From assembly GCA_964017195.1 (NCBI GenBank), contig OZ024900.1, forward strand, positions 32,132,641-32,196,640: DNA of 64,000 nucleotides, given 5' to 3'. Below, piece after piece: positions 5,183 to 45,822 of the stretch. This stretch comes from Siderastrea radians (taxonomy: Eukaryota > Cnidaria > Anthozoa > Scleractinia > Rhizangiidae). A program made the translations under genes and the position numbers. A model generated the notes under the pieces. That model did not search any database and was not told the DNA's origin. It worked only from the letters and a program-made list of their open reading frames with translations. The first letter of the stretch is position 1. The number at the start of each line of letters is the position of its first letter.

Positions 5183-5800
5183 CTAGTTAAATGGCAGTAG
5201 TCGCCAATGTTCCATTTCAAGCGCTTGTTCATAACACGGTGGCGGGGTGTTGGGGACATCTTCTGTCCAAAACCCCACTTCGAAAGATGAATAAACTTCA
5301 TCGATATTTTGAACAGCACTACAATAATCCGGCAGATCTCCCGAACAGGATTCAACTTCATTACTGTTTTGTGAAGGCGTAAAATACTCTGGCAAATCGC
5401 TTAAAGAGTTTTCACCATGAAGATCCGTTGGTTGATAATGAGGAGTGTGATAATAAGGAAGTACAAGGGCCGGAGATTTTTCCAAATCTTCTGCGGGAAT
5501 TCGAGAGACAGCAACTTGCATCGTTAAGCTGTGGCATCTTCTTTTACGTTGCTGGTAAAGTATTAATGATAGGCCCCCGATAACAAACAGTGATAGGGCG
5601 ACAGCCCCACAAATCGTCATTGCACGTAGATGTGTATTGGAAGACTGGCAGTTAGTACATGGTTTGTACCAAAGATACATGAAGAACAGCGAAATTCCAC
5701 TGGCTACAAGGCAGAGCAATCCGAATACAAAATAAATTCTTCCCTTGCACCTCAGCCATCTCGAAATTGCTTCGTCTTGAGCTATTAATGTCATCATCAT
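5183..5800 (-). CDS. Two-TM PY-motif membrane protein, member A
   Basis: A single-exon gene of 205 codons starting at a run of three ATGs. Predicted layout: short N-terminus with an Arg/Lys patch, TM1 about residues 22-45, a loop with CTNCQSS (conserved cysteines), TM2 about 62-82, and a basic stop-transfer (QQRKRR). A long cytoplasmic tail follows with the family block VAVSRIPAEDLEKSP (97-110), LPEYF (136-140), LPDYC (156-160) and PPPCYEQAL (186-194). There is no signal peptide. LPxY and PPxY are known ligands of WW domains, as in NEDD4-family ligases. That this protein recruits such a ligase is inference. The nearest relative here is the 11047 gene, which shares the GFWTEDVP-TPPPCYEQALEM tail. 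I do not recognise a named family. Expression is untested, but conservation across many paralogues argues it is real. Confidence 0.8.
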   Translation of the reverse strand: MMMTLIAQDEAISRWLRCKGRIYFVFGLLCLVASGISLFFMYLWYKPCTNCQSSNTHLRAMTICGAVALSLFVIGGLSLILYQQRKRRCHSLTMQVAVSRIPAEDLEKSPALVLPYYHTPHYQPTDLHGENSLSDLPEYFTPSQNSNEVESCSGDLPDYCSAVQNIDEVYSSFEVGFWTEDVPNTPPPCYEQALEMEHWRLLPFN

Positions 5801-5934
5801 GCAAAAATTTCGCAGAGCCTGTTACTCCAGCTGTAGCTAGAAGGACGATGAGGTGATGCAAATACATGCATTCTGACTCTAATAAATATTTTACTTTCTC
5901 TTCCTGTCTGAGGCGATCCCGGGAGGCGAACCCA

Positions 5935-6290
5935 CCAACCACTTCCCACTTCCTGTCTAATTAACAATTAGATTATGAGCTCGAGATTTCTATCGCGTGA
6001 TAGTTGATGAGGCCGAAGGCCGAATCAACTATCACGCATAGAAATCGAGAGCGAATAATCTAATTGTTTTAGTATAAATCTACTAGACGTTCAAAACTTA
6101 ACAGCAGACACTACATGTTTTTATTGAAAAATGATATAAATAGGTCACACCGCGTGCGGAAAACACTCTGCTCACTATCTACAACAGAATAGATAGTGAG
6201 TAGCGTAGCCAATCAGAGAACAGCATTAGTGTTAGAACGCTAGTAGATTTATACTAATATCAATTAGACAGGAAGTGGGAAGGATTGAAA
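5935..6290. repeat. Nested foldback MITEs
   Basis: CCCACTTCCTGTCTAATT near 5943 is mirrored by AATTAGACAGGAAGTGGGA near 6265. Inside, cgagatttctatcgcgtgatagttgat pairs with atcaactatcacgcatagaaatcg at 6032-6056. A separate arm (tttagtataaatctactag near 6068) pairs with ctagtagatttatactaat near 6240. This looks like at least two foldback elements, one inside the other. Confidence 0.6.
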
Positions 6291-6814
6291 ACACTGAAAT
6301 CCGTCTTGTATGGCTTCAATATAACTATTTTTTCGCTTCAACAAAGTAAATTCAAGGAAAATTCACTTCCAGTACTGTTTGGTACCAGAGGTATGAAAGA
6401 GTTACGTTTTTAGCCCACCAACCCTCCTGAACGCGTCGTATGCAAAATAGACACAAGAGTAGTTTAACTTAGTAATTGAGCGTTTACAAATCCTCTTTCT
6501 CTATACAATGTGAGATTGTCCCATATTGGTTATCATATATCTGGCGCGGATCCAGGTTTCTAGGAGAAGGGGTTGAATGAAAGGCGGCTCCCCAGTAGGG
6601 GGGTCCGGGGGCATCCTCCCCCTGAAAATTTTGAAATTTCAAGTCCTCAGAAACGCGATTTCCGCCATTCTGAGGCAAAGTCAGCGTGTTTTAATATCTT
6701 TTTTTTTAAAGTTAAAATGCCATATTTTTCATAAAAATATAACAAAGCTACGTAAAAACATGCAAATTTGCATTAATAAAACTATGATAAAAATATAATG
6801 CATTTTATCTTATT

Positions 6815-8095: not shown

Positions 8096-8114
8096 AATAA
8101 CTTCAAATGTTTAT

Positions 8115-9140: not shown

Positions 9141-9220
9141 ACCAAACAGTGAGGTGTCCGCCAAACTAGAATTAACTACATAAATCACAATTCTTACAGT
9201 ATTATTAAATTTTTTAAAAT

Positions 9221-9376
9221 TTAATTAAGTTGCAGGTCCCTGCTCGAAGTTGTATCCGCTTTGATTGTAGAAGGTCTCATTTTAAGTGCTTGTTTGTAAG
9301 TTGGTGGCGGGGTATCAGGTACGTGTGTCCGGCGAAATTCCGCGTTCAAAAGAGGATCAGAAACTCCATAAGCGTC
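9221..9376 (-). other. Untranslated C-terminal remnant with PPPTY motif, in frame after a stop
   Basis: Immediately after the TAA at 9377-9379 the same frame stays open for 51 codons to a second TAA at 9221-9223. It encodes a family-typical tail including VPDTPPPTYKQALKM. This equals the C-terminal end of other members, so the upstream stop looks like a recent nonsense change or a readthrough site. Confidence 0.75.
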
Positions 9377-9988
9377 TTAAACCGTGGGGAAATAATCTGG
9401 CGGATCTCCTGAAGCCGAAAGCTCAGCTTCATTACTGTTTTGTGCAGATGTTTTAACTCCATTACTGCTTTGTAGAGAGGTGAAATCTGGCAGATTTATC
9501 GCGAATGTTTCATCTCCTTTAGTGCTATGTACAGAAGTGAAACAATCTGGCAGAGCTATCGTAGAGGTTTCATCTCCATTACTGCTGTGTATGGAAGTAA
9601 CATAAACTGGCAGATTTATCAAAGAGGCTCCAACAAACGGCTGATTGTACGGAAGTATGGGAGCCGGCGATTTCTCCACGTCTCCCGCGGGAATCTCTGA
9701 GACTACAACTTCAGGAGTTGAACTGTCTTGTGGTTTTTTACGGAATAGTAAAATCCATAAGACAGTTATTCCAATACCGATTATTAAAATAGCACCTGAT
9801 CCAGTAAGATACACTAAGAGCGAGTTAGGCCAGGTACAATCAAAGCAAAACAAGATGAACATAACCGCGAAAGCTGTGGCACTCACCGCAAAACAGACAA
9901 ATGTTACTGCAATGGTAAACACACATAAAAGCCTTCTCTTATACTTCGATGATGTCCACGTTACTCGTCCTTCGTTGCTTTCTGGCAT
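9377..9988 (-). CDS. Two-TM PY-motif membrane protein, member B (premature stop)
   Basis: 203 codons from the ATG at 9986-9988. This member and the 45145 gene form a subfamily (MPESNEGRVTW against MSENNEERMTW, and the loop ending in C-WPNSLLV). TM1 is about residues 20-48 and TM2 about 58-82, followed by EVVVSEIPAGDVEKSP. The tail has 20-residue repeats in which the LPDYF core has drifted: LPVYV, LPDCF, LPDFT and a final PPDYF. A TAA then ends the protein before the usual C-terminal PPxY motif. Either a truncated product is made, lacking the main PY motif, or the gene is a pseudogene. The long intact frame and downstream coding tail suggest the change is recent. Confidence 0.65.
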   Translation of the reverse strand: MPESNEGRVTWTSSKYKRRLLCVFTIAVTFVCFAVSATAFAVMFILFCFDCTWPNSLLVYLTGSGAILIIGIGITVLWILLFRKKPQDSSTPEVVVSEIPAGDVEKSPAPILPYNQPFVGASLINLPVYVTSIHSSNGDETSTIALPDCFTSVHSTKGDETFAINLPDFTSLQSSNGVKTSAQNSNEAELSASGDPPDYFPTV

Positions 9989-11046: not shown

Positions 11047-11664
11047 CTAAGGGGCAGCATCTGCCGATGTTGTCATTTCAAGCGCTTGTTCGTAACACGG
11101 TGGCGGAGTTTTAGGGACATCTTCTGTCCAGAACCCTACTTCAAAAGATGAATATACATCATCGATATTTTGAACAGCACTACAATAATCCGGCAGATCT
11201 CCCGAAGAGGTTTCAACTTCATAACTGTTTTGAAAAGACGTAAAATAATCCGGTAAATCCCTCGTAGAAGCTTCGACACAAAGATCCATTGGTTGATAAT
11301 GAGGAGTGTGATGATAAGGAAGTAGAGGTGCCGGAGATTTTTCCAAATCTTCTGCGGGAATATGGGAGATGATAACTTCGAACGATGGACCATATCGCCT
11401 TCTTCTGTGCAGCGCGCAATTTCTTATGGCAACACTTCCGACAAGAAACAGTAAAATGGCGAAACCTCCACAAATCTTCCCTGCTACTAGATCAGTTTTC
11501 GAAGACTGGCAGTTAGAGCATGGTTTGAACAAAAGAAACACCAGCAACAGCAAAATTGCACTGCCTCCAAAACAAAGCAATCCGATTACAACAGAAATCT
11601 TTTCTTTGCACCTTAACCTGCATGTCAAAACTGCCTCATTTTGAACTATTTGTGTCACCATCAT
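11047..11664 (-). CDS. Two-TM PY-motif membrane protein, member C
   Basis: 205 codons from the ATG pair at 11659-11664; an in-frame GTG lies further upstream. TM1 is about residues 23-47, then the loop CSNCQSSKTDLVAGKICGG, TM2 about 64-81 and a basic RRRR stop. The tail carries VIISHIPAEDLEKSP, LPDYF (137-141), LPDYC (157-161) and PPPCYEQALEM near the end. It is closest to the 5183 gene: identical GDLPDYCSAVQNID and SSFEVGFWTEDVP segments and the same loop cysteines. No frame break was seen, so it is probably functional. Confidence 0.8.
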   Translation of the reverse strand: MMVTQIVQNEAVLTCRLRCKEKISVVIGLLCFGGSAILLLLVFLLFKPCSNCQSSKTDLVAGKICGGFAILLFLVGSVAIRNCALHRRRRYGPSFEVIISHIPAEDLEKSPAPLLPYHHTPHYQPMDLCVEASTRDLPDYFTSFQNSYEVETSSGDLPDYCSAVQNIDDVYSSFEVGFWTEDVPKTPPPCYEQALEMTTSADAAP

Positions 11665-12259: not shown

Positions 12260-12862
12260 TCAAATCTCTGGTAGTTCCTTGTTCGAGATGGAATCCTCTT
12301 CGCTAACAGGAGCAGCCAATTCTGACATTTTAAGCGCTTGTTCGTAAGACGGTGGCAGGTTTTCATGATCAGAGACATCCAAATCTTCTGTCCAGGATCC
12401 CGCGATGGCGGGATAAAAGTTACCGATGTTTTGAACAACAGAAAAATAATCCGGCAAATCACTGCAACCGTCTTCAACAAACGGCGGATAATGAGGAATG
12501 TGATTATATGGAAGTATAGGAGCCGGCGATTTTTCCAAGTCTCCCGCGGGAATGTCTGAAACAACAACTTGAGGAGCCGATCGGCGTTGTCTCCTTTGGT
12601 GGAAAACTAATATTAATAGTATGGACCCTCCAAGAACCAACAAGACAACAGCTCCAACTCCGCAGCGTTTTCTGGACACTGTGGACCAACGACAGCTGGT
12701 CTGATCCGTGCAAGATCTGAACCTGAAAATAACAAGGAGCGACAGCAAAACGGCGCTTGTTAAGCAAAGTGATCCGAAGACAATAGCTGACAAATAAATT
12801 CTTCTGCTGCATTTCGACCATTTCAAGGCTGCTTGTCCTTCCCTTTGAGTATTTTCTGCCAT
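12260..12862 (-). CDS. Two-TM PY-motif membrane protein, member D
   Basis: 200 codons from the ATG at 12860-12862, uninterrupted. TM1 is about residues 22-47 and the loop reads CTDQTSC. TM2 is about 67-87, then a strongly basic HQRRQRRS. The tail has VVVSDIPAGDLEKSPAPILPY, one LPDYF (136-140) and a C-terminal ENLPPSYEQALKM, so the PY motif is PPSY preceded by Leu. It is the intact parent or sister of the broken copies at 16766-17366 and 19286-19556, which share MAENT, the CTDQ-SC loop and the tail. Function unknown; the WW-ligand inference is as for the family. Confidence 0.8.
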   Translation of the reverse strand: MAENTQREGQAALKWSKCSRRIYLSAIVFGSLCLTSAVLLSLLVIFRFRSCTDQTSCRWSTVSRKRCGVGAVVLLVLGGSILLILVFHQRRQRRSAPQVVVSDIPAGDLEKSPAPILPYNHIPHYPPFVEDGCSDLPDYFSVVQNIGNFYPAIAGSWTEDLDVSDHENLPPSYEQALKMSELAAPVSEEDSISNKELPEI

Positions 12863-14114: not shown

Positions 14115-14120
14115 AAATAA

Positions 14121-16765: not shown

Positions 16766-17366
16766 TCAAATCTCTGGTAGTTCCTTGCTCGAGATGGAAT
16801 CCTCTTCGCTAACAGGAGGAGCCAGTCCTGACATTTTAAGCGCTTGTTCGTAAGACGGTGGCAGGTTTTCATGATCAGAGACATCCAAATCTTCTGTCCA
16901 GGATCCCGCGGGATAAAAGTTGTCGATGTTTTGAACAACAGAAAAATAATCCGGCAAATCGCTGAAAGCCGCTTCAACAAACGGCTGGTAATGAGGAATA
17001 TGATTATAGGGAAGTATGGGAGCCGGCGACTTTTCCAAGACTCCCGCGGGAATGTCCGAGACGACAACTTGAGGAGCCGATCGACGTTGTCTTCTTTGGT
17101 GACAAACTAACAGTATGGACCCTCCAAGAACAAACAAGACAACTGCAGCACCTCCGCGGTATTTTGGCGACACCGCCGACCAACGTACGACAGCTGGACT
17201 GATCCGTGCAAGATCTGAACCTGGGGGCAAAAAGGAGTGACAGCAAAACGGCGCTTGTTGCGAGGCAACCTGATCCGAATACGATAGCTGAGAAATAAAT
17301 TCTTCTGCTGCAGTTCGACCATTTCAAAGTGGCTTGAACTTCCCTTCCAGTATTTTCTGCCATCAT
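16766..17366 (-). pseudogene. Broken PY-motif gene, member E (4-bp frameshift)
   Basis: From the ATG at 17364-17366 the frame encodes a member-D-like N-terminus (MAENTGREVQATLKWSNC), TM1 and loop start CTDQSSC. It then shifts: relative to the 12260 gene, GTAC is inserted at 17185-17188 within ACGTACGA. The other frame continues from about 17230 with TM2, VVVSDIPAGVLEKSP, LPDYF and LPPSYEQALKM and ends at 16766. Apart from the insertion the coding text is well kept, so the lesion is recent, a polymorphism, or a sequence error. Confidence 0.75.
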
Positions 17367-18592: not shown

Positions 18593-19276
18593 TCATATAT
18601 CTCTGGTATTTCCCTTTTCAAAATTTGCACCCACATCCTTTAAGGTAGCTGCCATCGTTGCCATGGCATCTTCGTAGCACGGTGGCGGGGTTTCAGGGAC
18701 ATTATGTGTACAAATTTGCAAGTCTGCATCTGAATAAACTTGGTCGATGTTCTGTACCACTGAGAAATAATCCGGCAAACCTTTCGAAGAGGTCTCAACT
18801 TCAGAATTCTGTTCCGTCAAACTATTTATGGAAGAGGCTTCAACTTCAGAACTGTTTTGAACAGTACCAAAATAATCCGGCAAATCTGTAGAGGAAGCTT
18901 CATCAAACAGCTGATGGTGTGGAATGCAGTTATAAGAAGGTATAAACGCAGGACTTTTTTCCACGTCTTCCGCGGGAATCTCGGAGACAACAACTTGAAA
19001 AGAAGAACGGTGTTGTCTTCGTTTGCGTATAAATAACAGCATAAAGACTCCGATAAGAAACAGTGAAATAGCGACACCTCCACAAGTCTTCCCCCACGAA
19101 CGATGGCAGATTGTTTGTTTCTTGCAAGGTTGAAACATGAAAGCAAATATGATCAAAACCAACACGGCACTTGTTACAAGGGAAAACACTCCGAATACGA
19201 AAACCGATAAATAAAACCCAGTGCTGCACTTAGACCATCTCAGGACTTCTCGTACTTCAGTATTTTCTGTCATCAT
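18593..19276 (-). CDS. Two-TM PY-motif membrane protein, member F
   Basis: 227 codons from the ATG at 19274-19276. TM1 is about residues 22-49, the loop is CKKQTICHRSWGKTCGG, TM2 is about 66-84 and the stop-transfer is IRKRRQHR. The tail has VVVSEIPAEDVEKSP, LPDYF (132-136), a degenerate middle unit (SINSLTEQNSEVE) without the motif, LPDYF (167-171) and TPPPCYEDAM (196-205), with Asp-Ala-Met where others have Gln-Ala-Leu. It is a close paralogue of the 31699 gene over its full length and over ~500 bp of 3' flank. The frame is intact. Confidence 0.8.
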   Translation of the reverse strand: MMTENTEVREVLRWSKCSTGFYLSVFVFGVFSLVTSAVLVLIIFAFMFQPCKKQTICHRSWGKTCGGVAISLFLIGVFMLLFIRKRRQHRSSFQVVVSEIPAEDVEKSPAFIPSYNCIPHHQLFDEASSTDLPDYFGTVQNSSEVEASSINSLTEQNSEVETSSKGLPDYFSVVQNIDQVYSDADLQICTHNVPETPPPCYEDAMATMAATLKDVGANFEKGNTRDI

Positions 19277-19285: not shown

Positions 19286-19556
19286 CTAAGTTGCTTCAGG
19301 AGCTTGAGGAACCGATCGGCGTTGTCTTCTTTGGTGGCAAAACCCAACTCTGCAGCCGTGTTTTCTTGAGACTGTCGACCAACGACAGCTGGTCTGATCC
19401 GTGCAAGATCTGAAGCTGAAAGCAAAAAGGAGCGACAGGAAACCGGCACTTGTTGCGAGGCAAACTGATCCGAATACGATAGCTGAGAAATAAATGCTTC
19501 TGATGCATTCGACCATTTCAAGGCTGCTTGTTCCTCTGTTTCAGTATTTTCTGCCA
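19286..19556 (-). pseudogene. Truncated PY-motif gene copy (D-like)
   Basis: Starting at the ATG at 19554-19556 it reads MAENTETEEQAALKWSN, then shifts frame near 19505 and continues as SIYFSAIVFGSVCLATSAGF with the CTDQTSC loop. TM2 is almost entirely deleted (HGCRVGFCHQRRQRRS), and the sequence stops around 19288, where it abuts the 5' flank of member F. The whole cytoplasmic tail is missing. The junction marks a deletion or unequal exchange between a D-type and an F-type unit. Confidence 0.75.
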
Positions 19557-20184
19557 TTATCAACCAGTTGGTCATCTGATAAAGAGTAGCTATGACGAAG
19601 ATCAAGTTCTCAAGGCAGAATAAACAATGGTGGGGCAAACTGTTTTTGCTTCCTTTGTTCATGATAATTGCAAGGCTTAGAGAACGTGCTTGTGAGTGTC
19701 AATTTTAAAACCAATATGGTCAGTGAAGTGTAGCAGACAGAAATAGACTTATGCTTAGTATACAAGAGAATATAGATGGCGAGGAACAGCAAATGTCCAC
19801 TATCAGACAGTCCGTCTGGTCTTGGCAGGGCTTACAATCCTCGAAAGTCTTTTAAAAAAGGACCTAATAAACTTACGCGCTTAAATTTTTGGCAGTATTC
19901 GTTGAATCACGCAGCGTGCCAAAACTTAGAAAAGTACCGCAAACAAAGCCAGTCCCGTACAAACAAATATAGTTTTAATTGTCAATAACACTCATGACTA
20001 GGTTATGACCCCTAATTTTTAGAAAAAACAAATTTCAGTGCGAGGCTATTAGGCACAGGGGCAAAAGGAAGAAGGCGGATTTTAAAACTTCCTCTAAAGG
20101 AATGAACTTTATTACCGTCATTGTAAGCAAATGAATAATCACGATACAAAGAGCAAGTCTTCAGGACAGAAAAAACTGTTACAA
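19557..20184. other. Duplicated upstream flank
   Basis: Parallels the upstream region of member D (12880-13510), including 'caggacaga.aaaactgttacaaggt'. It ends at the target site of the 8.7-kb element. Confidence 0.5.
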
Positions 20185-22056: not shown

Positions 22057-22069
22057 TAGCCTGCGAGCA

Positions 22070-27319: not shown

Positions 27320-27323
27320 ATCC

Positions 27324-31698: not shown

Positions 31699-32469
31699 TC
31701 AGTTGATGAATCCAAATTTGTTGTATTCCTCTTGTGGTGGGCTGTATTCCGGCTGTATTCTTCGTATATCTCTGGTATTTCCCTGTTCGAAATCTGTATC
31801 CACATCCACTGATTTAGCTGCCAACGTTGCCATTTTTAACGCTTGTTCGTAGCATGGTGGCGGGGTTTGGGGGACATCACATGTGCGAATCCCCAAGTCT
31901 ACATCTGAATAACCTTCGTCGATATTTTTTACATTTGAGAAATAATCTGGCAAACCTATCGAAGAGGTCTCAACTTCAGAGTTCTGTTGTAAAGTTGTAC
32001 AGTGAACTGGCAAACTATTTTTCGAAGAGGCTTGAACGTCAGAACTGTTTTGAACAATACTAAAGTAATCCGGCAAATCCGTTGTGGAGGTTTCGCGAAA
32101 CAGCTGACGATGTGGAATGCAGTTATAAGAAGGTATGAACGCGGCAGTTTTTTCCACGTCTTCCGCGGGAATCTCGGAGACAACAACTTGAGGAGAAAAA
32201 CGGCGTTCTCTCCGTTTGCGTATAAATAACAGCATAAAGACTCCGACGAGAAACAACAAAACAGCGACACCTCCACAAATTTTCCCCCACGAACGATGGC
32301 AGTTTGTTTGGTTCTTGCAAGGTTGAAACATGAAAGCAAATACGATCAAAACCAACACGGCACTTGTTACAAGGGAAAGCAATCCGAATACGAAAACCGA
32401 TAAATAAAACCCAATGCTACACATAGACCATCTCAGGACGTCTCGTACTTCGGTATTTTCAGTCATCAT
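31699..32469 (-). CDS. Two-TM PY-motif membrane protein, member H
   Basis: 256 codons, the longest member, from the ATG at 32467-32469. TM1 is about residues 22-49, the loop is CKNQTNCHRSWGKICGG and TM2 is about 66-84. The tail has VVVSEIPAEDVEKTA, LPDYF (132-136), a decayed unit LPVHC (153-157), LPDYF (173-177) and TPPPCYEQAL (202-211). Its paralogue at 18593 stops after GNTRDI. Here the frame continues 21 more residues (RRIQPEYSPPQEEYNKFGFI and a final Asn) into sequence derived from the adjacent foldback repeat. Otherwise full-length similarity to 18593 is high and the frame is intact. Confidence 0.8.
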   Translation of the reverse strand: MMTENTEVRDVLRWSMCSIGFYLSVFVFGLLSLVTSAVLVLIVFAFMFQPCKNQTNCHRSWGKICGGVAVLLFLVGVFMLLFIRKRRERRFSPQVVVSEIPAEDVEKTAAFIPSYNCIPHRQLFRETSTTDLPDYFSIVQNSSDVQASSKNSLPVHCTTLQQNSEVETSSIGLPDYFSNVKNIDEGYSDVDLGIRTCDVPQTPPPCYEQALKMATLAAKSVDVDTDFEQGNTRDIRRIQPEYSPPQEEYNKFGFIN

Positions 32470-35165: not shown

Positions 35166-36184
35166 TTATTTTTAGCTAGTTCACCGGTTTCCCTCATCTT
35201 GTAGACTGATTTTGTATTTCATCCATTGTAGTTAATAGTTAGCATTTTTATATTTTATCCATTGTTGTTAGTAGGTAAGCACTTTTTATCTATTTTTTGA
35301 AGGTTGTAAATTAGGTTTTGATATTTTTGTCTTGTAAACGCTTGAGGCTCTGCAAAATGCGTCTATAAAAACTGTTTTTGTTATTATTATTACTGGCTGT
35401 ACGCAAGGCCACTCGAGAAAATGGCCGCGACACAACTGAGTGAAGTGCGAGAAACACTTATAGTTCTTTAATATTATTTTCCTGTAGAACAAAAAACTAG
35501 CAGCCAAATTTTACCAAGACAACTGCCTCAGTGGCCTCTATGCTGGCTGCGGACCTGCTATTCCCCTTCAGTGACTCCTTCCCGCCGCCCCATCAAACTG
35601 GGTCGTGGGATCCCGTTTCTCGAAAGTCCCGATAACTTATCGGGTCCTGGGACCCGTTTTTCGAAGCTTCCTTTAATTTATCGGCCCTCGGGCCCGTTTC
35701 TCGAAACTTACGTTAACGGAAACTAGCCAATTTGTTTTAGATAACTATAAAACAAAGTTAATAAAATTTGAGTCTCTGCTGAAAAATGTTTTGCACATAA
35801 AATAGTTTTCGGCCCGGATTAGTTACAAGGAGTTCCGAAAAACGGTCCCTTGGTCTTCTTGGCTACATTAGAAGGCCATGGTTAACATATTTGGTCACAG
35901 TTTGAAATAAGTTCATGAACTTTGTCCTGAATTGGCGTGATAATTAATTGTCTTGATGGCGCGGGACGCATTCATCATCATATATATTACCTCAAAATTT
36001 ACATACCTATTGTCATGATAGTCAACTATGATTAGTCAATAAGACATTCACATTTCCAAAGACAATATTTGCAGTTATGGAGAGTAAACCTGTCAATCCG
36101 TTCATTTTCTGATGTGTAGAAATGGAAACACTTTACTGGAACAAAAAAGTTACTTCGCCAGTGCGTATAACGTAACTAACGAGG

Positions 36185-36790
36185 TTATAGTCTTGTATCT
36201 CCTTCACTTCCCTGTTCAATGTGGGTATTTGCAGCATCTGTACTAGCAGCAGCTAATTCTGACATTTTAAGCGCTTGTTCGTAAGTCGGTGGCGGGCAGT
36301 TTTCGTAATCAGAGGCATCTAAATCTTCTGTCCAGAAGCGCGGCGTGTTCACAGGTAATCCAACATCATCTTCATTTTGAACAGTAGATGTTTCCAGAAA
36401 CGACTGACGTTGACTTGGGATATGGCAATAAGAAAGTATGGGGGACGCAGATTTTTCCAAATCTTCTTCAGGAATCCGAGAGACAACTACTTGCTCTGGG
36501 CCGTGTTTTTTCAGTTTTATGTGGCAATATAACATGATACCACCTCCGACAAGAAACAGTATAGCCGAGATAGCTCCACAAATTTCGCCGGTTTTTCTTG
36601 TATTCGACGTGCAGGAGCATTCACCAGTAGTGCAAATTTCGGAGAAAATAAACACGAGCGACAGTAGAACGAAACTCGTCCCAAGGCAAATCAAACCAAA
36701 CGCAAAACCTGATTTATAAAATCTCCTTCTGCACTTCGGACATCTAGAGATCGCTGCTTCAGTTGTCTGTATCTCAGTATTTTCTGTCAT
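36185..36790 (-). CDS. Two-TM PY-motif membrane protein, member I
   Basis: 201 codons. The N-terminus carries CPKCRR (17-22), a CxxC pair that is unique to this trio and could bind metal or be acylated. TM1 is about residues 27-50, the loop is CTTGECSCTSNT, TM2 is about 70-90 and the stop-transfer is KLKKHG. The tail has VVVSRIPEEDLEKSASPILSY and ends in ENCPPPTYEQALKM (PPPTY 166-170). It has no LPDYF: relative to members J and K, the stretch around residue 131 is remodelled and the motif lost. It is the most diverged of the three tandem copies. Confidence 0.8.
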   Translation of the reverse strand: MTENTEIQTTEAAISRCPKCRRRFYKSGFAFGLICLGTSFVLLSLVFIFSEICTTGECSCTSNTRKTGEICGAISAILFLVGGGIMLYCHIKLKKHGPEQVVVSRIPEEDLEKSASPILSYCHIPSQRQSFLETSTVQNEDDVGLPVNTPRFWTEDLDASDYENCPPPTYEQALKMSELAAASTDAANTHIEQGSEGDTRL

Positions 36791-37180
36791 TGTTAAACAC
36801 TTAGCAACGTTTATTGACTGCTTTTAGGGGTACTAGAATAAATCAATATAAAGCAAATCTGTTAACACTTCCTGTGCTTGTAAACACGCGCTAGTGTGAC
36901 GCGGTATTAAACACGCTTAAATTGGCATTAAGGACAAAAAGTTCACCGAAGTGTATAGCTAACCGAAGTGGAATTTTCCACAAAGTGCTTTTTTGAAACT
37001 CAAGAGGTTGTGAATAAAGCCGTGCGTAATATGCAGTCCAAGGTGGTTCTAAAAAAGTGAAACCATTCAGATGAAAGCTATTGGGCACTGAATAGTTTTC
37101 TTTGCTACTTTTTATTTAAAAACATAATAATTTGAAAAAGGAAGTTTGGTAATATTAGGCACTGTCGCAAAGAAGAGGAA

Positions 37181-37240
37181 CCAATCAAGCGTAAAAGAAT
37201 CGTGACGTATTCTAACCCTTTAATGACTGATATAAATAAT
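37181..37240 (+). promoter_or_regulatory. Candidate core promoter, tandem copy 1
   Basis: Plus-strand order CCAAT (37181-37185), TGACGTA CRE-like (37203-37209), TATAAATA (37231-37238). The spacing is canonical for a polymerase II promoter pointing right, away from member I. The same trio is retained in the other two copies. Retention could simply reflect recent duplication, and no plus-strand gene follows. Confidence 0.35.
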
Positions 37241-37850
37241 TTCAGTTGTCATTTAAAAGCCATTTACTTGTGTTTTTGTATCAGAAATAAATAAAAGTAA
37301 GGTTTAATTTTTCAAAGTCGAAAAGTGATTGAGTGAAGTGTGAGTAACACTTAAGTTTTTTTGTTTTAAACATTCCTGTACAACCAAAAAAGTAGCAGCC
37401 AAATTTTTACCGAGGCAACTACCTCAGTAACCTCTATGCTGGATACGGGCCTGCTATACCCCTTCAGAGACAAACTTCTTCCTACCGCCCTATCAATCAT
37501 TCAACTTTAAAAAAATAAACATTGAAACAGTTTAAACGACAAATAATAAGAAGTTGTAGAAATCCATTTTGTTGAGGCATCAAACTGTTTCTAAAATTGA
37601 CACTAATCATGGAATAGATTAACCCTGCTTTGAAAAGCCGGGTGCTGGGGTCCCGTTTCTCGAAAGTCCCAATAACTTACCGGGTTCCGGATAAGTATAA
37701 GTTATAAATCCGTTTTAATAGCGATTGGAGGTAGTTTTTAACGAACTGACTTGCCAATTTGTTTTAGACAATTATAACATAAATTAAAGAAAATGTATTG
37801 TTCAAAATCAATTAAATGTTTCTGTTGAAAAATGTTTTGCACATAAAATA

Positions 37851-37919
37851 GTAGCCTGCGTGCAGACGTCTCCTATTTGCAAGAAGCAAAGGAAATAGGA
37901 GACGTCTGCGCCCAGGCTA
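37851..37919. repeat. ~69-bp hairpin MITE
   Basis: tagcctgcgtgcagacgtct and its mirror agacgtctgcgcccaggcta flank a short loop. Present in tandem copies 2 and 3 only. Confidence 0.75.
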
Positions 37920-38334
37920 ATAACATAGTTTTCGGTCCGGGTTAGTTATAACGAGGTTCGGAAAAAAAAAACGAAAAAAAAAACACACACAAAAAAAAGA
38001 AACCGGGCCCCTGGTCTTCTTGGCTACATTCGAAGGTCATGGTTAACATATTTATATCAGAGTTTGATATATGTTCTTGAACTTTGTTTTCAGTTGGCCT
38101 GATAATTGTTTCCATGGCGCGGGACGCATTCGTCATCATATATATCACCTTAAAATTTACATACCTATTGCCATAATAGTCAACTACGATTAGTCAATAA
38201 GACCTTTACATTTCCAAAGACAATATTTGCAGTTATGGACAGTAAACGTGTCAAATCCGTTCATTTTCTGATGTACAGAAATGGAAACAATCCATAAAGC
38301 TATTTTGCCAGTGCGATTAACGTAAGTGACAGGG

Positions 38335-38958
38335 TTATAGTCTTGTATCTTCGGCGATTCCTTGTTCAAAGTGGGTATTAACATCCTCTGTACTAGCCGC
38401 CGCAGTTAATTCTGTTATTTTTAGCGCTTGTTCGTAAGTTGGTGGCGGGTTTTCGTAATCAGAGGCATCTAAATCTTCTGTCCAGAATCCTGCGTTCACA
38501 GATAGTTCAACATCATCCTTATTTTGAACAGTAGTAAAATAATCCGGCAGATCTATCGAAGATGTTTCCGCAGATGACTGAGCTGGAATATGGCAATAAG
38601 GAAGTATGGGTGACGGAGATTTCTCCAAATCTTCTTCAGGAATCCGAGAGACAGCTACTTGCGCTGGGCCGTGTTTTTTCAGTTTTTTGACGCAAGATAA
38701 TATCATGCCACTTCCGACAAGAAACAGTATAAAGGCGATAGCTCCACAAATGTCGCCGGCTTTTTCTGTATTCGACGTGCGGGAGCATTTATCAGTAGTA
38801 CAAGATTTGTAGAAGACAAACACGAGCGACAATAGAACGGCACTCGTTAGTAAGCAAATCAAACCAAACACAAAACCTGTTTTATAAAATCCCCTTCTGC
38901 ACTTCGGACATCTAGAGATCGCTGCTTCAGTTGTCTGTATCTCAGTATTTTCTACCAT
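38335..38958 (-). CDS. Two-TM PY-motif membrane protein, member J
   Basis: 207 codons, uninterrupted. N-terminal CPKCRRGFYKTGF, TM1 about residues 27-50, loop CTTDKCSRTSNTEKAGDICG, TM2 about 71-90, and basic KKLKKHG. The tail has VAVSRIPEEDLEKSPSPILP, one LPDYF (137-141), GFWTEDLDASDYENPPPTYE (PPPTY 171-175) and ends EQGIAEDTRL. It is nearly identical to the 40475 gene and likely functional. Confidence 0.8.
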   Translation of the reverse strand: MVENTEIQTTEAAISRCPKCRRGFYKTGFVFGLICLLTSAVLLSLVFVFYKSCTTDKCSRTSNTEKAGDICGAIAFILFLVGSGMILSCVKKLKKHGPAQVAVSRIPEEDLEKSPSPILPYCHIPAQSSAETSSIDLPDYFTTVQNKDDVELSVNAGFWTEDLDASDYENPPPTYEQALKITELTAAASTEDVNTHFEQGIAEDTRL

Positions 38959-39348
38959 TGTTAAACACTTAGCAATGTTTATTGACTGCTTTTAGGGGTA
39001 CTAGAATAAATCAATATAAAGCAAATCTGTTAACACTTCCTGTGCCGTGTAAACACGCGCTAGTGTGACGCGGTAGTAAACACGCTTAAATTGGCATTAA
39101 GGACAAAAAGTTCACCGAAGTGTATAGCTAACCGAAGTGGAATTTTCCACAAAGTGCTTTTTTGAAACTCAAGAGGTTGTGAATAGGTCGTGCGTAATAT
39201 GCAGTCCAAGGTGGTTCTAAAAAAGTGAAACCATTCAGATGAAAGCTATTGGGCACTGAATACTTTTCTTTGCGACTGTTTATTTAAAAACATAATAATT
39301 TGAAGGAGGAAGTTTGGTAATATTGGGCACTGTCGCAAAGAAGAGGAA

Positions 39349-39408
39349 CCAATCAAGCGTAAAAGAATCGTGACGTATTCTAACCCTTTAATGACTGATA
39401 TAAATAAT
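39349..39408 (+). promoter_or_regulatory. Candidate core promoter, tandem copy 2
   Basis: CCAAT 39349-39353, TGACGTA 39371-39377, TATAAATA 39399-39406, with the same spacing as copy 1. Confidence 0.35.
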
Positions 39409-40010
39409 TTCATTTGTCATTTAAAAGCCATTTACTTGTGTTTTTGTATCAGAAATAAATAAAAATAAGGTTTAATTTTTCAAAGTCGGAAAGTGATTGA
39501 GTGAAGTGTGAGTAACACTTAAGGTTTTTGTTTTACACATTCCTGTGCAACCAAAAAAGTGGCAGCCAAATTTTTATCGAGGCAACTACCTCAGTAACCG
39601 CTATGCTGGACATGGATACGTTCAGAAACAGACTTCTTCCCGCCGCCCTATCAATCATTCAACTTTAAAAAAATTAAAATTAAAACAGTTTAAACGACAA
39701 CTAATAAGAAGTTGTAGAAATCCATTTTGTTAAGGCATCAACCTTTTTCTAAAATTGTCACTAATCTTGGTATAGATTAACACTGCTTTGAAAAGCCGGG
39801 TGCTGTGGTCCCGTTGCCCGAAAGTCCCGATAACTTACCGGGTTCCGGATAAGTATCAGTTATAAATCCGTTTTATTAGCGATTGGAGGTAGTTTTTAAC
39901 GAACTGACTTGCCAATTTGTTTTAGACAATTATAACATCAATTAAAGAAAATGTATTGTTCAAAATCAATTAAATGTCTCCGTTGAAACATGTTTTGCAC
40001 CTAAAATAGT

Positions 40011-40079
40011 AGCCTGCGTGCAGACGTCTCCTATTTGCGTGAAGCAAAGGAAATAGGAGACGTCTGCGCGCAGGCTAAT
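40011..40079. repeat. ~69-bp hairpin MITE, second copy
   Basis: Matches 37851-37919 with slight loop differences; part of the tandem unit. Confidence 0.75.
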
Positions 40080-40474
40080 AAAATAGTTTTCGGACCGGGT
40101 TAGTTATAAGGAGGTTTGGAAGAAAAAAAAAAAAAAAAAAAAACGGGCCCCTGGTCTTCTTGGCTACATTCGAAGGTCATAGTTAACATATTTATATCAG
40201 AGTTTGATATATGTTCTTGAACTTTGTCCTCAGTTGGTCTGATAATTGTTTCCATGGCGCGGGACGCATTCATCATCATATATATTACCTCAAAATTTAC
40301 ATACCTATTGCCATAATAGTCAACTACGATTAGTCGATAAGACCTTTACATTTTTAAAGACAATATTTGCAGTTATGGACAGTAAACGTGTCAAATCCGT
40401 TGATTTTCTGATGTGTAGAAATGGAAACAATCCATAAAACTATTTTGCCAGTGCGTATAACGTAAGTGACAGGG

Positions 40475-41098
40475 TTATAGTCTTGAATCTTCGGCGATTC
40501 CTTGTTCAAAGTGGGTATTTACATCCTCTGCACTAGCCGCCGCAGTTAATTCTGTTATTTTTAGCGCTTGTTCGTAAGTCGGTGGCGGGTTTTCGTAATC
40601 GGAGGCATCTAAATCTTCTGTCCATAATCCTGCATTCACAGACAGTTCAACATCATCCTTATTTTGAACAGCAGTAAAATAATCTGGCAGATCTATCGAA
40701 GATGTTTCCACAGATGACTGAGCTGGAATGTGGCAATAAGGAAGTATGGGTGACGGAGATTTTTCCAAATCTTCTACAGGAATCCGAGAGACAACTACTT
40801 GCGCTGGGCCATGGTTTTTCAGTTTTTTAACGCAAGACAACATTATGCCACTTCCGACAAGAAACAGTGTAACGGAGATAGCTCCACAAATTTCGCCGGC
40901 TTTTCCTGCATTCAACGTGCGGGAGCATTTACCAGTAGTACAAGATTTGGAGAAGACAAACACGAGCAACAGTAGAACGGAACTCGTTAGTAAGCAAATC
41001 AAACCAAACACAAAACCTGTTTTATAAAATCCCCTTCTGCACTTTGGACATCTAGAGATCGCTGCTTCAGTTGTCTGTGTCTCAGTATTTTCAGTCAT
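40475..41098 (-). CDS. Two-TM PY-motif membrane protein, member K
   Basis: 207 codons, intact. It differs from the 38335 gene at scattered positions (for example TGKCSRTLNAGKAGEICGAI in the loop and VVVSRIPVEDLEKSP after TM2). It keeps CPKC, LPDYF (137-141) and PPPTYEQAL (171-179). Changes lie mainly in TM1, the loop and TM2, while the tail motifs are untouched, which hints that the cytoplasmic tail is the constrained part. Confidence 0.8.
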   Translation of the reverse strand: MTENTETQTTEAAISRCPKCRRGFYKTGFVFGLICLLTSSVLLLLVFVFSKSCTTGKCSRTLNAGKAGEICGAISVTLFLVGSGIMLSCVKKLKNHGPAQVVVSRIPVEDLEKSPSPILPYCHIPAQSSVETSSIDLPDYFTAVQNKDDVELSVNAGLWTEDLDASDYENPPPTYEQALKITELTAAASAEDVNTHFEQGIAEDSRL

Positions 41099-41491
41099 CG
41101 TTAAACGCTTACCAATGTTTATTGACTGCTTTTAGGGGTACTAGAATAAATTAATAAAGCAAATCTGTTAACACGTCCTGTACTTGTAATCACGCGCTAG
41201 TATGACGCAGTATTAAACACGCTTAAATTGGCATTGAGGACAAAAAGTTCACTGCCGGAAGTGTATAGCTAACCGAAGTGGAATTTTCCACTAAGTGTCT
41301 TTTTAAAACTCAAGAGGTTGTGAATAAGCGGTGCGTATTATGCTGTCCAAGGTGGTTCTAAAAAAGTGAACCCATTCAGATGAAAGCTATTAGGCACTGA
41401 ATACTTTTCTGTGGTACTGTTTTTTAAAAACATAATAATAATCTGAAAAAGGAAGTTTGGCTGTATTGAGCACCGCCGCAAGGAAAAGGAA

Positions 41492-41550
41492 CCAATCGTG
41501 CTTAAAAGAATCGTGACGTATTCTCACCCTTTAATGATGATATAAACAAT
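41492..41550 (+). promoter_or_regulatory. Candidate core promoter, tandem copy 3
   Basis: CCAAT 41492-41496, TGACGTA 41514-41520, TATAAACA 41541-41548. The TATA is slightly changed compared with copies 1 and 2. Confidence 0.3.
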
Positions 41551-41640
41551 TTCATTTGTCATTCATTAAAAAGCTATTTATTTCGGTTTTTGTATCAGAA
41601 ATTGATAGAAATAAGGTTTAACTTTTCAAAGTTTAAAAGT

Positions 41641-42619
41641 GCAAAAAGGGCACAATCCCTAGTTTGATAACAGGGAACTACTAGTCGACAACGAGGAATG
41701 AACATTTATTAACTGATAAGTCTAATGAGAGAGAAGAAAATTTTTTCTCAGTTGTTAGTAGTGCGGCGTATAAGAAGCTGTGTTACATTTGACCGCGAAG
41801 TATGCATCCTCCTATTGCCTCACTCAGCGAGTTTTCTAATTCTCTCCGATGGCAACTTTATAATTGACGCAGTGATTTCGAAGCTCATCCAGCGATATTC
41901 ATCGAGACGGAAAATCATAAACATAAAGGAGGGTATGAAAATCAGGATAAATTTTGGGGAGTTTGTCCCTTTAAACTCTCTTTTTCTTAGTGCCTCGTTT
42001 TGAATACCCAAGCGAGTGTTTCACCAGGAAGTCCATTGCTTCGAATTTCGTAAAAAACCCCCCGACCTTCTTGGTGTTCAGCATTCAATGAATCTGATGA
42101 AACGTGCTTTCTTGCGTTTGATATTTTACACGAGTGACTTGGCTATGAATATGATAATTTGTGTTTTGACCTTGGTACGTGGTGATAGTGGTTTGGTGTC
42201 TTGACGTCAAAACGCGAATGGAAAATCGACCCTAGCCCACGCCGCTTTCGCTCTGGATGCTTTTACGGAAACCTTCATAAAATTGTCGTTTTATTACCCC
42301 AGAGAGCTGTTTAATACCAATAAACCCTCATAGTTTATCTGGGTCCGTATCTTTCTATAAGTTGAGAGTAAAACTTGCTATTTTTCCATAGCTAACAATT
42401 ATTACGTCATTTGCTCAAAACGGAGTTGTTCAGTGTCACGCTTCTGACGAAATTAACGAAGCAGAAAACAACCAAAGAACGCAAACAACACGTAAACTGG
42501 CTTTTGTTTCTAAACAAAGGTATTTCCTGTTAAATCAACATTAAAACTGAAGGAGGCCTAACAAATAAAATACTCACCAGCCACAGCAGCACTGAATTAC
42601 ACTGAAAAAAAAAATTGGA
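41641..42619. other. Intergenic region, nothing recognised
   Basis: Short unrecognised frames only, including a 92-codon plus frame at 41725-42003. It lies between the triplication and the degenerate plus-strand family member. Confidence 0.4.
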
Positions 42620-43000
42620 ATGAAGGAAAAAGAAGTGTTGATGTCAAGTTCGAACAGTGGGACAAGTAAATCAAAGTTGTATTTTGGGTATCTAGCAGCC
42701 GCAGTTTTCGCATTTCTCTCTCTGGCAGGGAGTGTGGTTATTCTAGCGTTCATTTTTATTGCGTTTAACGATCGTGTTGCCTGCCACTCGCCGAACGAAG
42801 AGGGCGACTCGACGAACTTAGGGGCAGTTGTAGGACTTATTGCTGTTCCTCTTTGTATCATTGGAGGACTCACAGATCTTGGACATAAGAGGACTCCAAA
42901 AACCCGCCACCATGTCTCGAAAATGCGCTTGAAATTACAGAGCTAGTGGCTGTTATTATAGCCATTCCAAACAGGCAACTACCAAAGATAGAAGAACTAG
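42620..43000 (+). pseudogene. Degenerate PY-motif gene: internal deletion plus frameshift
   Basis: The frame from 42620 encodes a short N-terminus, TM1 (YFGYLAAAVFAFLSLAGSVV), a loop with one Cys and TM2 (GAVVGLIAVPLCIIGGL), then quickly TPK. One base later, in a second frame starting at 42901, comes NPPPCLENALEITELVA, clearly the family's PPPCYEQALE---LAA tail. The five-A run at 42898-42902 is one A short. The block between TM2 and the tail (VVVSxIP and LPDYF repeats) is deleted, and the PY tyrosine is Leu. Plus strand, like the 45145 gene. Confidence 0.7.
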
Positions 43001-43469
43001 TTCTTCCTTTAAGGACTTCAAGTGATCAGAGTCCAAAATCCAGCGGTCTTGAATTTCCCCGTGCAGACCAGCCCACGCTCAGGAGCGAAACAGCAGACAC
43101 TACACGCCTTGTGATTGGTTAAAAAACAATGAACTTCAATACTGTGGAAACAGAACTATCAACTGCATTTTAAGAGAAACTGAACTGTTTTATCTTCTTG
43201 TTTCCACCAAATCAAGAAAAAAAACTTGTAAAAGTGTGGAACTCTGTGGAAACTCAGATTTCGACGGCTCTTGTTTCGACAGCTTTTACTCAAAGAGCGT
43301 TCATTTAGACTAATATTTATGTAAGAAATGTAATATAATGTAGTATACGTTAGATTTGTTCATAATATATGAAAAATACTAGGTTTAGATATTTATTTGA
43401 ATATGATTTGAATATAGCGAAATCCTCATTTTCTTCTTATTCTCTTCTTCCGTAGAACCCCAACTGCAG
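43001..43469. other. Gene-less stretch
   Basis: No gene. 43085-43140 (cagcagacactacacgcctt) resembles 6105-6130, a dispersed repeat trace. Confidence 0.35.
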
Positions 43470-43746
43470 AGGCGGATCCAGGAGCGGGGTAAAGGGAGTT
43501 GCAACCCACTTTCCCGACCAGTTCTTTTTTTGTTTTAGTTTTGCCTCTTGTAATTCTGCATTAATACCCTCTGAAAAGAATCCCGTAATTTACAATCTGC
43601 TCTTTCAAAACGTACTGGGCAAATTTACCGTCAGAGTCCCCCCTGGGAAGTTAACCTTCCCCCTGGGAAGTTAACGTTTCCCCTGGGAAGTTAACATTCC
43701 CCCTGGTAATACCCTTCTTTCAAAGAATCCTGGATCCGCCCCTCCA
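43470..43746. repeat. hAT-type MITE with internal 23-bp tandem
   Basis: aggcggatccagga near 43473 is mirrored by tcctggatccgcccct near 43727. The gcggatc core is that of hAT ends (compare 6541-8472). Inside, 'ccccctgggaagttaac' repeats three to four times at 43645-43706. Confidence 0.6.
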
Positions 43747-45144
43747 CTGAAACGTAAGATGAGAAATTCTTCTATGCCCAGATATCAGAACGATTAATTA
43801 CCATCTGACTATATCTTCCGTAAGGTTCCAAAGCTGACAGAATTAAAACATATAATCACTTCAAAACGTAGTGGGAATTGCTCCAAGCCGATCTACACCT
43901 TCTCTAACATCGTTCCCAGGGTCTTTTTAGAGACCCTGGGAACGAGTTTGTACCTTGTCTTATGCTAAACTCGTGCAGCGCGAATGTTCTCACGCAAAGT
44001 CCAACTGATTAACAATCATTGGACATGTTGCAAGGACAACATTCCGCTGAGGTGTCACGGTTCTTCTTGTGGATACAAAACGTAATTTCTGGTAGCTGCT
44101 ACACGTGCTATTCATGGGGTATAGTTTTCCGGTGTTTTTTTTTTTGCAAGGGAGGGGAGGCAGAGGAGGTGTTTATCAAGCTGAATGCGTGACGTTCTTT
44201 TCCTTACGTGACATCCACTGAGTCACGCAGTAGAAGCACTGAAAATACTAATCAATTTGGCAAGTTTTATCAACGAGGAAAGCTCAATTTTTGATGCCTT
44301 AGCTGTACTATTGATGAGCAATACTCCTGGTGTACGTGGTTTAAAATTTAGGGAAACACAAAATATCGAGGAATTTTTTAATTTGATGCGTATAACATAT
44401 AGTACGTGCTGTGTCGTAGGAACTTGTCGTGACGTCAAACACGGAACCCACTTACATGACACCTATTCACTTCCCGTTCCGCTTTTAATAACCGCTCTGA
44501 TCCGTTTCCGAATCGCTTTCCTCGCTTGCGATACAAGAAGGCAATAAATTATACAAAATGTGATATATTCGTCAGTTATTTTTTACGCAGTATTGTCTTT
44601 ACTTAAAACAATCAAGTAATTACTGTTGTTATAGTTCCTTGATGCTCCACTGCTCCTGACTTATCATACCAACCAACCTGATAGCGTGCTTCAAATCCAT
44701 ATCTCGCGAGTTCCGCTTGGGTAAACATCTTCGGCTCTGAATGAAACCGGAAATGACAATGAACACATGCGAACGTACAGTATTATTGCACCAACTTTTC
44801 AAATTGACTTCTGAGTTTGGATTTTTAAGTAAATGTCACTATAATGAAGAGAGAAAGAAAAATATGCTCTCCTTTCACTCCGGCTAAAACTTATCGTTAT
44901 TCAGTTGATGTATGATAGTCAGTGGCCCTTGGCAACACCTGTAGTTTCACGTCTCTGAAGCGGATGTTGCCGTAGGCGTAGAAAGGTTAAGTTATCCGAT
45001 AAGGGTGAACTCAGCTGAAAAGAAACAATATATTGCGATTACTATGCAACAAGACTCCTTAGGGCAGCACGAACAAAACTTGCCATCAAAACTACCTAAA
45101 AGCGCTCAGGCTGAGAGTATTATAACCTCAGTAAATTTTTGAAT
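43747..45144. other. Intergenic region with one hairpin
   Basis: CGTTCCCAGGGTCT and AGACCCTGGGAACG at 43911-43947 form a tight hairpin. The rest has no recognisable gene; a 96-codon plus frame at 44257-44547 is not convincing. It includes the upstream region of the 45145 gene. Confidence 0.4.
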
Positions 45145-45822
45145 ATGTCGGAAAACAACGAGGAACGAATGACGTGGAGATCGTCTAAGTGTAAAGGAAA
45201 ACTTTTGTACATATTCGCTTCAACGGTGGCATTTCTCTGTTTTGCAGCCAGTGCGGCGTGTTTGACGATCGTGTTGATTTTGTTTTGTCCTGAATGTGCC
45301 TGGCCTAACTCACTGTTGGTGTGGGTTAATGGAGCAGGATCCGTTGCACTTTTCACAATTGGAATAATGACACTGTGGATGTTAATATTCCGCCCCAAAA
45401 CACAAAACACTTCGACCGCTCAAGTTGTCGTCTCTGAGATTCCCGCCGAAGACATCGAAAAATCGCCGGCTCCTGTACTTCCTTATCATCATATCCCTCA
45501 TCGACAGTCTCCTCTTCATGAAACCTCTTCGATGGATCTTCCGGATTACTTTATATCTGTACAAAACAGTAATGCCGTTGGAGCCTCTTCGATAGATCTT
45601 CCGGATTATTTCAGCTCCGTGCAAAACAGTAATGAGATTCAAGCCTCTTTGATAGATCTGCCGGATTATTGTAGTATTGTACAAGCCAACGACGAAGTTT
45701 CATTACCATCCGTGGACGTGGACTTATGGACAAATCATGCCCCCAAAACACCACCCCCATGTTACGAACAAGCTCTTGAAATGGCAGCAGTGGCAGCTTC
45801 TGTAAATAAGGTGTATGAATAA
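45145..45822 (+). CDS. Two-TM PY-motif membrane protein, member M
   Basis: 225 codons from the ATG at 45145; an in-frame TTG six bases upstream is not used. It is the only intact plus-strand member. TM1 is about residues 20-48, the loop is CPECAWPNSLL, TM2 is about 60-83, then VVVSEIPAEDIEKSPAPVLP. The tail contains three LPDY units at exact 20-residue spacing (LPDYF 132-136, LPDYF 152-156, LPDYC 172-176; repeated S-IDLPDYFSSVQNSNE text) and ends with TPPPCYEQALEM (202-213). It is the best repeat-preserving copy and sister to the 9377 gene. Four potential WW ligands in one tail suggest avidity binding (inference). Confidence 0.82.
   Translation: MSENNEERMTWRSSKCKGKLLYIFASTVAFLCFAASAACLTIVLILFCPECAWPNSLLVWVNGAGSVALFTIGIMTLWMLIFRPKTQNTSTAQVVVSEIPAEDIEKSPAPVLPYHHIPHRQSPLHETSSMDLPDYFISVQNSNAVGASSIDLPDYFSSVQNSNEIQASLIDLPDYCSIVQANDEVSLPSVDVDLWTNHAPKTPPPCYEQALEMAAVAASVNKVYE

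What the first reader, a model, noticed from the sequence alone, without database searches (positions are those of the whole stretch)
5183..45822. A lineage-specific array of two-TM proteins with LPxY and PPxY motifs
About 13 related single-exon genes and broken copies share two TM segments, a Cys loop, VVVSxIPAxDxEKSP, LPDY[FC] units and C-terminal PPPxYEQAL. LPxY/PPxY are established ligands of WW domains, notably in NEDD4-family ligases (compare NDFIP, LAPTM and WBP1-type adaptors). I know no named family with this layout. Inference: an expanded set of membrane adaptors recruiting ubiquitin ligases, possibly for receptor turnover, immunity or symbiosis.
Basis: partly seen in the sequence, partly recalled or inferred. 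Interest (0 to 1): 0.88.

Follow-up and report, generated by a model that had tools for sequence, protein, structure and literature searches.

The report
Coral array of PY-motif membrane proteins
What looks like a stony-coral genome carries a cluster of related small membrane proteins that keep the same inner tail, built like known tags that summon protein-disposal enzymes, while their membrane and outer parts vary, so they may be a set of adaptors for removing surface proteins.

Summary
A profile search of the six-frame window finds 13 loci: nine intact one-ORF genes of 200-256 aa and four broken copies. dN/dS is below 1 in the four pairs tested. The family is large: 172 distinct sequences in hand, many sharing contigs. 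The three hits named with an organism are stony corals (Oculina, Porites). No Pfam match reached its cutoff wherever scores were shown; the best E among 61 members is 6.7e-5 (MARVEL, one member). Of 172, 163 have two hydrophobic segments by a simple scan. AlphaFold2 gives a helical hairpin with a mostly coil tail, at low confidence.

The best-conserved parts are three tail blocks: VVVSxIPAEDLEKSP, DLPDYFTxVQN and PPPxYEQALxM. The last has the form of the extended PY motif of Commissureless (GLPSYDEAL) and PRRG (GLPSYEQAV); Comm binds Nedd4 by its PY motifs.

Best reading: membrane adaptors recruiting NEDD4-type ligases by multivalent PY motifs, cargo unknown. Anatomy and motif grammar are shown; WW binding, ligase recruitment and cargo are inferred. 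Restriction to corals is not proven, and no transcript was examined.

The parts
5183..5800 (-). intact member, 205 aa; two TM; LPYY, LPEY, LPDY and PPCY in the tail
9239..9988 (-). broken member, in two frames; frame lost before the PPxY region
11047..11664 (-). intact member, 205 aa; two LPDY and one PPCY
12260..12862 (-). intact member, 200 aa; one LPDY and one PPSY
16769..17366 (-). broken (two-frame) member close to 12260-12862
18593..19276 (-). intact member, 227 aa; two LPDY and one PPCY
19370..19560 (-). 5' fragment of a member
31699..32469 (-). intact member, 256 aa; two LPDY and one PPCY
36185..36790 (-). intact member, 201 aa; PPTY only, LPDY unit missing
38335..38958 (-). intact member, 207 aa; one LPDY and one PPTY
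40475..41098 (-). intact member, 207 aa; one LPDY and one PPTY; the modelled reference
40778..40789 (-). SRIP core of the conserved juxtamembrane block, residues 104-107 of the 40475 member
   Evidence: coordinates from residue numbers
40679..40690 (-). LPDY motif, residues 137-140
   Evidence: coordinates from residue numbers
40574..40585 (-). PPTY motif, residues 172-175, followed by EQAL
   Evidence: coordinates from residue numbers
42656..42954 (+). broken member: TM part and a degenerate tail, middle missing
45145..45822 (+). intact member, 225 aa; three LPDY units at a 20-residue period and one PPCY
35838..41641 (.). tandem duplication block carrying the three members at 36185, 38335 and 40475 (self-matches 85-90%)

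Best explanation
The array encodes two-pass membrane proteins, both ends in the cytosol, with a short outer loop that usually holds two or three Cys. The long, mostly disordered tail offers one to four [L/P]PxY motifs, successive ones about 20-41 residues apart. These most likely bind the WW domains of NEDD4-family HECT ligases multivalently and bring the ligase to membrane cargo chosen by the divergent TM/loop part, so that the cargo is ubiquitinated and sorted to endosomes, as Comm, Ndfip and WBP1L do. Shown: array, two hydrophobic segments, conserved tail, extended PY grammar, dN/dS below 1. Inferred: topology (from charges), WW binding, ligase recruitment, cargo, endosomal site, and any use in immunity or symbiosis.
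For: PPxY in 165 and LPDY/LPEY in 162 of 172 distinct sequences, both in 155. Of 171 PPxY, 152 read PPxY[ED]x[AV][LIVMF], the grammar of Comm GLPSYDEAL and PRRG GLPSYEQAV. Mean column conservation is 0.84 for the LPDY block, 0.78 for PPxY and 0.77 for SxIP, against 0.44 for the loop and 0.50-0.52 for the TMs. Loop Cys53 and Cys58 are kept in 130 and 127 of 133 non-gap rows. LPDY/LPEY units are repeated within 19 of 139. The YxxPhi sorting signal is not kept at LPDY: Y+3 is V, I, L or F in 76 of 158, while Y+4 is V or I in 134 of 158. The model puts a helix at 175-191, beginning at the PPxY tyrosine. dN/dS 0.44-0.53 in the four pairs tested, one-sided p 0.04 to 3e-6. A published survey infers four NEDD4-subfamily genes in the cnidarian ancestor (PMC2837046, passages).
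Against: No binding or expression evidence. PPxY also binds non-ligase WW proteins (YAP, WWOX; recalled). LPDYFTxVQN is conserved well beyond LPxY, and the SxIP block has no role in this scheme, so the tail probably does something more. Homologues were collected partly through shared tail words, which inflates tail conservation. Faster loop evolution is not significant in three independent pairs (15/4 vs 156/83, p 0.31). For Comm itself, earlier work cited in PMC5578492 held that Nedd4 binding is not needed for midline crossing.
Confidence: 0.55

Rival explanations
1. The tails bind WW domains of non-ligase proteins (YAP-type, WWOX-type) or act as decoys or regulators of the ligases themselves, not as cargo adaptors. 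CYYR1, for example, triggers degradation of WWP1.
For: PPxY is a general WW ligand; CYYR1 binds WWP1 through PPxY and triggers its autoubiquitination and degradation (PMC11399591, passages).
Against: The acidic Y+1, Ala Y+3, aliphatic Y+4 pattern matches the Comm/PRRG motif. The divergent TM/loop fits varied partners, though that is not proof.
Confidence: 0.2
2. The tail is a phosphotyrosine signalling tail: LPDYFTxV and PPxYExAL are kinase sites for SH2/PTB proteins and the family forms receptors or co-receptors.
For: The Tyr of LPDY is Y in 131 of 137 non-gap rows, with fixed flanks.
Against: Six of the 137 rows carry Phe there. The ITIM consensus (recalled) wants an aliphatic at Y-2, where this motif has Pro. 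Prolines at both motifs are nearly invariant, which fits WW better.
Confidence: 0.12
3. The VVVSxIPAEDLEKSP block is an EB1-type SxIP motif that ties vesicles or membrane sites to microtubule ends.
For: In the 139-row alignment S 137, I 134 and P 138, with the x position variable.
Against: EB ligands usually have basic flanks (recalled). Here acidic residues follow (E 119 and D 137 of 139).
Confidence: 0.05
4. A drifting, mostly decaying tandem cluster with no retained function.
For: Four of 13 copies are broken.
Against: Nine intact copies, dN/dS below 1 in the four tested pairs, and close intact counterparts on other contigs (97-99% protein identity for four of the nine).
Confidence: 0.04

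Closest known systems
Commissureless (insects)
   Same: Short membrane protein with PPxY plus LPxY in the cytosolic tail; extended motif GLPSYDEAL; PY motifs bind Nedd4 and are needed for Robo1 ubiquitination (PMC12101832, PMC5578492, passages).
   Different: Single TM, lacks Cys in its extracellular domain; no SxIP-DLEKSP block recalled. Whole sequences were not compared here.
PRRG (proline-rich Gla) proteins
   Same: GLPSYEQAV followed by PPxY; coral PPxYEQAL reads the same up to the last residue after the Tyr.
   Different: Gla domain and one TM (recalled). Not compared by sequence.
NDFIP1/2
   Same: PY-motif proteins that recruit NEDD4-family ligases.
   Different: Three TM (recalled); no NDFIP model appeared among the matches shown.
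STMC6/Shisa-like (WBP1, WBP1L, VOPP1, CYYR1, TMEM92)
   Same: Outer Cys, TM, several PPxY; WBP1L adapts ligases to CXCR4.
   Different: Short single-pass proteins; most have a six-Cys pattern, CYYR1 a signal peptide and Cys-rich domain. Here two hydrophobic segments in 163 of 172 and two loop Cys in 90 of 139; signal peptides were not tested.
TMEM252 / TMEM171 (Pfam PF15664, PF15471)
   Same: Weak hits; TMEM252 is recalled as two-TM with PPxY tail.
   Different: TMEM252 14.6 bits against cutoff 27 in one window member; TMEM171 in 5 of 61 at best E 0.0029, 13 bits against 27 where shown.

Membership tests
Comm / Comm-like PY adaptors | extended [L/P]PxY with acidic and aliphatic residues after Tyr | tested here: met
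   152 of 171 PPxY fit PPxY[ED]x[AV][LIVMF]
Comm / Comm-like PY adaptors | single TM, no Cys in the outer part | tested here: not met
   two hydrophobic segments in 163 of 172; loop Cys at residues 53 and 58
STMC6/Shisa-like | single-pass with six-Cys outer domain | tested here: not met
   2 loop Cys in 90 of 139, 3 in 36; two hydrophobic segments
TMEM252/TMEM171 | match above Pfam gathering score | tested here: not met
   by score; by E-value only
Any Pfam family | match above gathering score | tested here: not met
   no cutoff reached for 9 intact window proteins, one broken one (9377-9988) and seven hits; for the rest of the 61 in A1 only E-values are shown, best 6.7e-5 (MARVEL), 1.7e-4 (TMEM52), 4.1e-4 (DUF7139), one member each
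Any PDB family | significant sequence match | tested here: not met
   best Claudin-9 E 0.032
NEDD4-family adaptor (by function) | binding to WW domains of a HECT ligase and cargo ubiquitination | not testable with these tools
   needs binding and cell assays
Lineage-specific family of stony corals | absence outside Scleractinia | tested here: inconclusive
   3 hits named with an organism, all coral; other hits unnamed; 95 of the 215 hits were not listed

The most novel reading that the evidence does not exclude
Corals hold a diversifying repertoire of ligase adaptors with a constant recruiting tail and variable membrane and outer parts, each member removing a different surface receptor or symbiont-contact protein, with PY copy number setting strength. 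The SxIP-DLEKSP block would be an undescribed second docking site.
Probability: 0.2. Interest if true: 0.75.

Novelty: new variant of a known kind. Interest (0 to 1): 0.5.

Why it matters
PY-motif membrane adaptors exist in yeast, flies and vertebrates as several small families. A large coral set with a fixed tail grammar and varied membrane parts would be another such case, and a handle on how corals tune surface receptors. It also offers a profile for a family for which no Pfam model was found here, and conserved peptide blocks with no known partner.

Tried and rejected
Rejected: a YxxPhi sorting signal as the reason for Tyr conservation at LPDY (Y+3 is V, I, L or F in only 76 of 158). Claudin kinship (E 0.032 on a hydrophobic stretch) and a bromodomain match at LPDY (E 0.18), both chance-level. 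MARVEL (best E 6.7e-5, one of 61 members) and TMEM52 (1.7e-4, one of 61): lone matches; where bits were shown they were below cutoff (MARVEL 16.3 vs 32.8, TMEM52 19.1 vs 26.4). TMEM171/TMEM252 membership. Positive selection on the outer loop: dN exceeds dS in some young pairs there and in a few other regions, but the loop is not significant over three independent pairs. Viral or phage origin: 12 pattern matches in IMG/VR, none encoding a relative (close relatives only); no tblastn match of one member in phage records. A fold search was not run because the model is weak (mean pLDDT 61, pTM 0.31). Neighbour genes: 10 of the 91 open frames of 75 or more codons outside the array, all among the 12 longest, were scanned against Pfam; one matched (reverse transcriptase/endonuclease).

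Limits: alignment A1 used 61 sequences, the nine intact window proteins and 52 of the 55 hits (P0011, P0040, P0054 and the broken copies left out). One search scanned eight of the nine intact proteins and one broken one; 38335-38958 was scanned. One search listed 25 of 135 families and no bit scores beyond the first member; one search is the check. In the counts, P0058 is identical to the 11047 member and P0011 is part of the 31699 member: 139 rows are 138 different, and 172 still counts P0011. One search listed the best 120 of 215 hits and scored only 7998 candidates. One search ended in a script error after the region means; the column table was redone. Literature searches for an earlier description: PPxY+transmembrane+coral (13 papers, 8 listed, none on this by title) and LPDY+coral (none); a description elsewhere or under another name would be missed. 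A TMEM252 search (81 papers, 20 listed) was not used further. Five papers were opened, and of each only passages were seen.
Full report
The observation. The window has no N and about 0.39 GC (mean). ORF listing, tblastn of members against the window and a profile search of 2116 six-frame segments agree on an array from 5.2 to 45.8 kb. It has nine intact ORFs (eight on minus, one on plus) and four broken copies. The 42656-42954 copy on plus was found by the profile but not by the tblastn. The next best match after the 13 loci has E 0.11, so the edge of the set is clean.

Anatomy. All nine intact window proteins, and 163 of 172 distinct family sequences (134 of 139), have exactly two hydrophobic segments by a simple Kyte-Doolittle scan. 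In the window proteins net basic charge lies before TM1 and after TM2, which suggests both ends in the cytosol; this is a charge argument, not a trained predictor, and several loops are also net positive. The loop is short. Cys53 is C in 130 and Cys58 in 127 of 133 non-gap rows. AlphaFold2 on A1 gives helices 18-52 and 62-95, a mostly coil tail and a helix 175-191, but mean pLDDT is 61 and pTM 0.31, so only the secondary structure is used.

The tail. Three blocks carry the conservation: VVVSxIPAEDLEKSP (S 137, I 134, P 138, D 137, K 134 of 139), DLPDYFTxVQN (L 137, P 136, Y 131 of 137 non-gap rows) and PPPxYEQALxM (second and third P 134 and 137, Y 137 of 138). Outside them regional conservation is 0.39 to 0.59. 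Across 172 distinct sequences, LPDY or LPEY is present in 162, PPxY in 165, strict SxIP in 161, all three in 146; the 26 without all three are listed there and include the window member 36185. The last LPDY and PPxY lie a median of 31 residues apart (5th to 95th percentile 23-41). LPDY/LPEY is repeated two to four times in 19 of 139 and absent in 9; in 45145-45822 three units follow at a 20-residue period. A caution: the searches collect relatives by shared words, so the counts lean towards conserved tails.

Motif grammar. In the PPxY motifs of 139 rows, Y+1 is E in 124 of 136, Y+3 is A in 127 and Y+4 is L, I or V in 126; in the LPxY motifs, Y+4 is V or I in 134 of 158. [quoted passage not shown] The 2025 study (PMC12101832, passages) reports that removing LPSY or both PY motifs ends Comm's ability to raise Robo1 ubiquitination, and that Ndfip proteins act likewise in mice. 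PMC5578492 also notes earlier work in which the Nedd4 interaction was not needed for midline crossing, so the Comm mechanism itself has been debated. The coral motif PPxYEQAL has the same form. This is a resemblance of short motifs, not proof of common descent.

Relatives. One search found 55 proteins, (profile) 215 with E up to 1 of which 120 were listed, and (tail of the 45145 member) 46; together 164 protein ids. Three carry an organism name: two Oculina patagonica loci on one contig length and one Porites evermanni protein. Judged by equal longest-contig length, a proxy, 17 other contigs hold two or more listed clusters, so clustering is common. Close counterparts exist for the 36185 (97%), 38335 (99%) and 12260 (97%) members and for 45145 (98%). 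The counterparts of 36185 and 45145 share a contig length (1850933), which suggests a conserved cluster in a near relative or another haplotype. In a tree of 139 rows the window members fall in five groups (45145; 12260; 18593 with 31699; 5183 with 11047; 36185 with 38335 and 40475). The last four are strongly supported (98/94 to 100/100); 45145 joins P0038 and P0041 at 93/87, inside a seven-row group at 99/97. In four of the five groups a window member sits next to sequences from elsewhere; in that of 18593/31699 the nearest rows are the window's own. The root and deepest split are weak (57/28). Old diversification plus more recent tandem copies fits this. Self-alignment shows a duplicated block at 35838-41641.

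Selection. dN/dS over the whole ORF is 0.51, 0.53, 0.52 and 0.44 in four pairs, with one-sided Fisher p 0.041, 0.0058, 0.00099 and 3e-6. In the other three pairs it is 0.71, 0.54 and 0.47 and was not tested. Some regions of young pairs show dN above dS, mainly the loop, but the pooled loop test is not significant (p 0.31).

Known families. No Pfam model reached its cutoff for the nine intact window proteins, one broken one and seven hits for which scores were shown. Among the 61 of A1, three families reach E 5e-4, each in one member: MARVEL 6.7e-5, TMEM52 1.7e-4, DUF7139 4.1e-4; DUF7139 is 20.4 bits against 30, and for MARVEL and TMEM52 the bits of that best member were not shown. At E up to 1, no listed family is matched by more than 9 of 61. 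PDB gave nothing for one member and chance-level hits for the profile. So this looks like a family without a Pfam model; its working kind, a multi-PY membrane adaptor, is known.

Setting. Tandem duplication is widespread in corals: 29.9% of genes in Porites lobata, with receptors likely related to innate immunity prominent among amplified families (PMC10236652, passages). An expanded array is therefore not unusual in itself, and neither ubiquitin nor NEDD4 occurs in that paper's main text. The NEDD4 subfamily is inferred to have had four genes in the cnidarian ancestor (PMC2837046, passages), so the presumed partner is likely present; it was not looked for in this genome.

Verdict. A real, large gene family, coral as far as named, with a strongly conserved multi-PY tail and signs of purifying selection. 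Adaptor for NEDD4-type ligases is the best reading (0.55). Immunity or symbiosis remains a guess. The SxIP-DLEKSP block is unexplained and is the most open part of the finding.

Noticed in passing
window 24106-27900 and about 21360-22080: An 83-bp minisatellite, 33 or more copies listed; a second block of the same unit length whose unit reads as the reverse complement of the first (by eye on the printed units).
   Followed up: no
window 46244-48835 (+): Long ORF with reverse transcriptase and endonuclease domains, probably a non-LTR retrotransposon, next to the array.
   Followed up: partly
window 22418-22954 (+): 179-codon open frame with no Pfam match at E 0.01, between the two minisatellite blocks.
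   Followed up: no
window 2426-3069 and 8497-9146: A duplicated stretch of about 650 bp at 86% identity on either side of the first member.
   Followed up: no
tail of the members, for example 40778-40789 (-): Near-invariant SxIP within VVVSxIPAEDLEKSP, of unknown role.
   Followed up: partly
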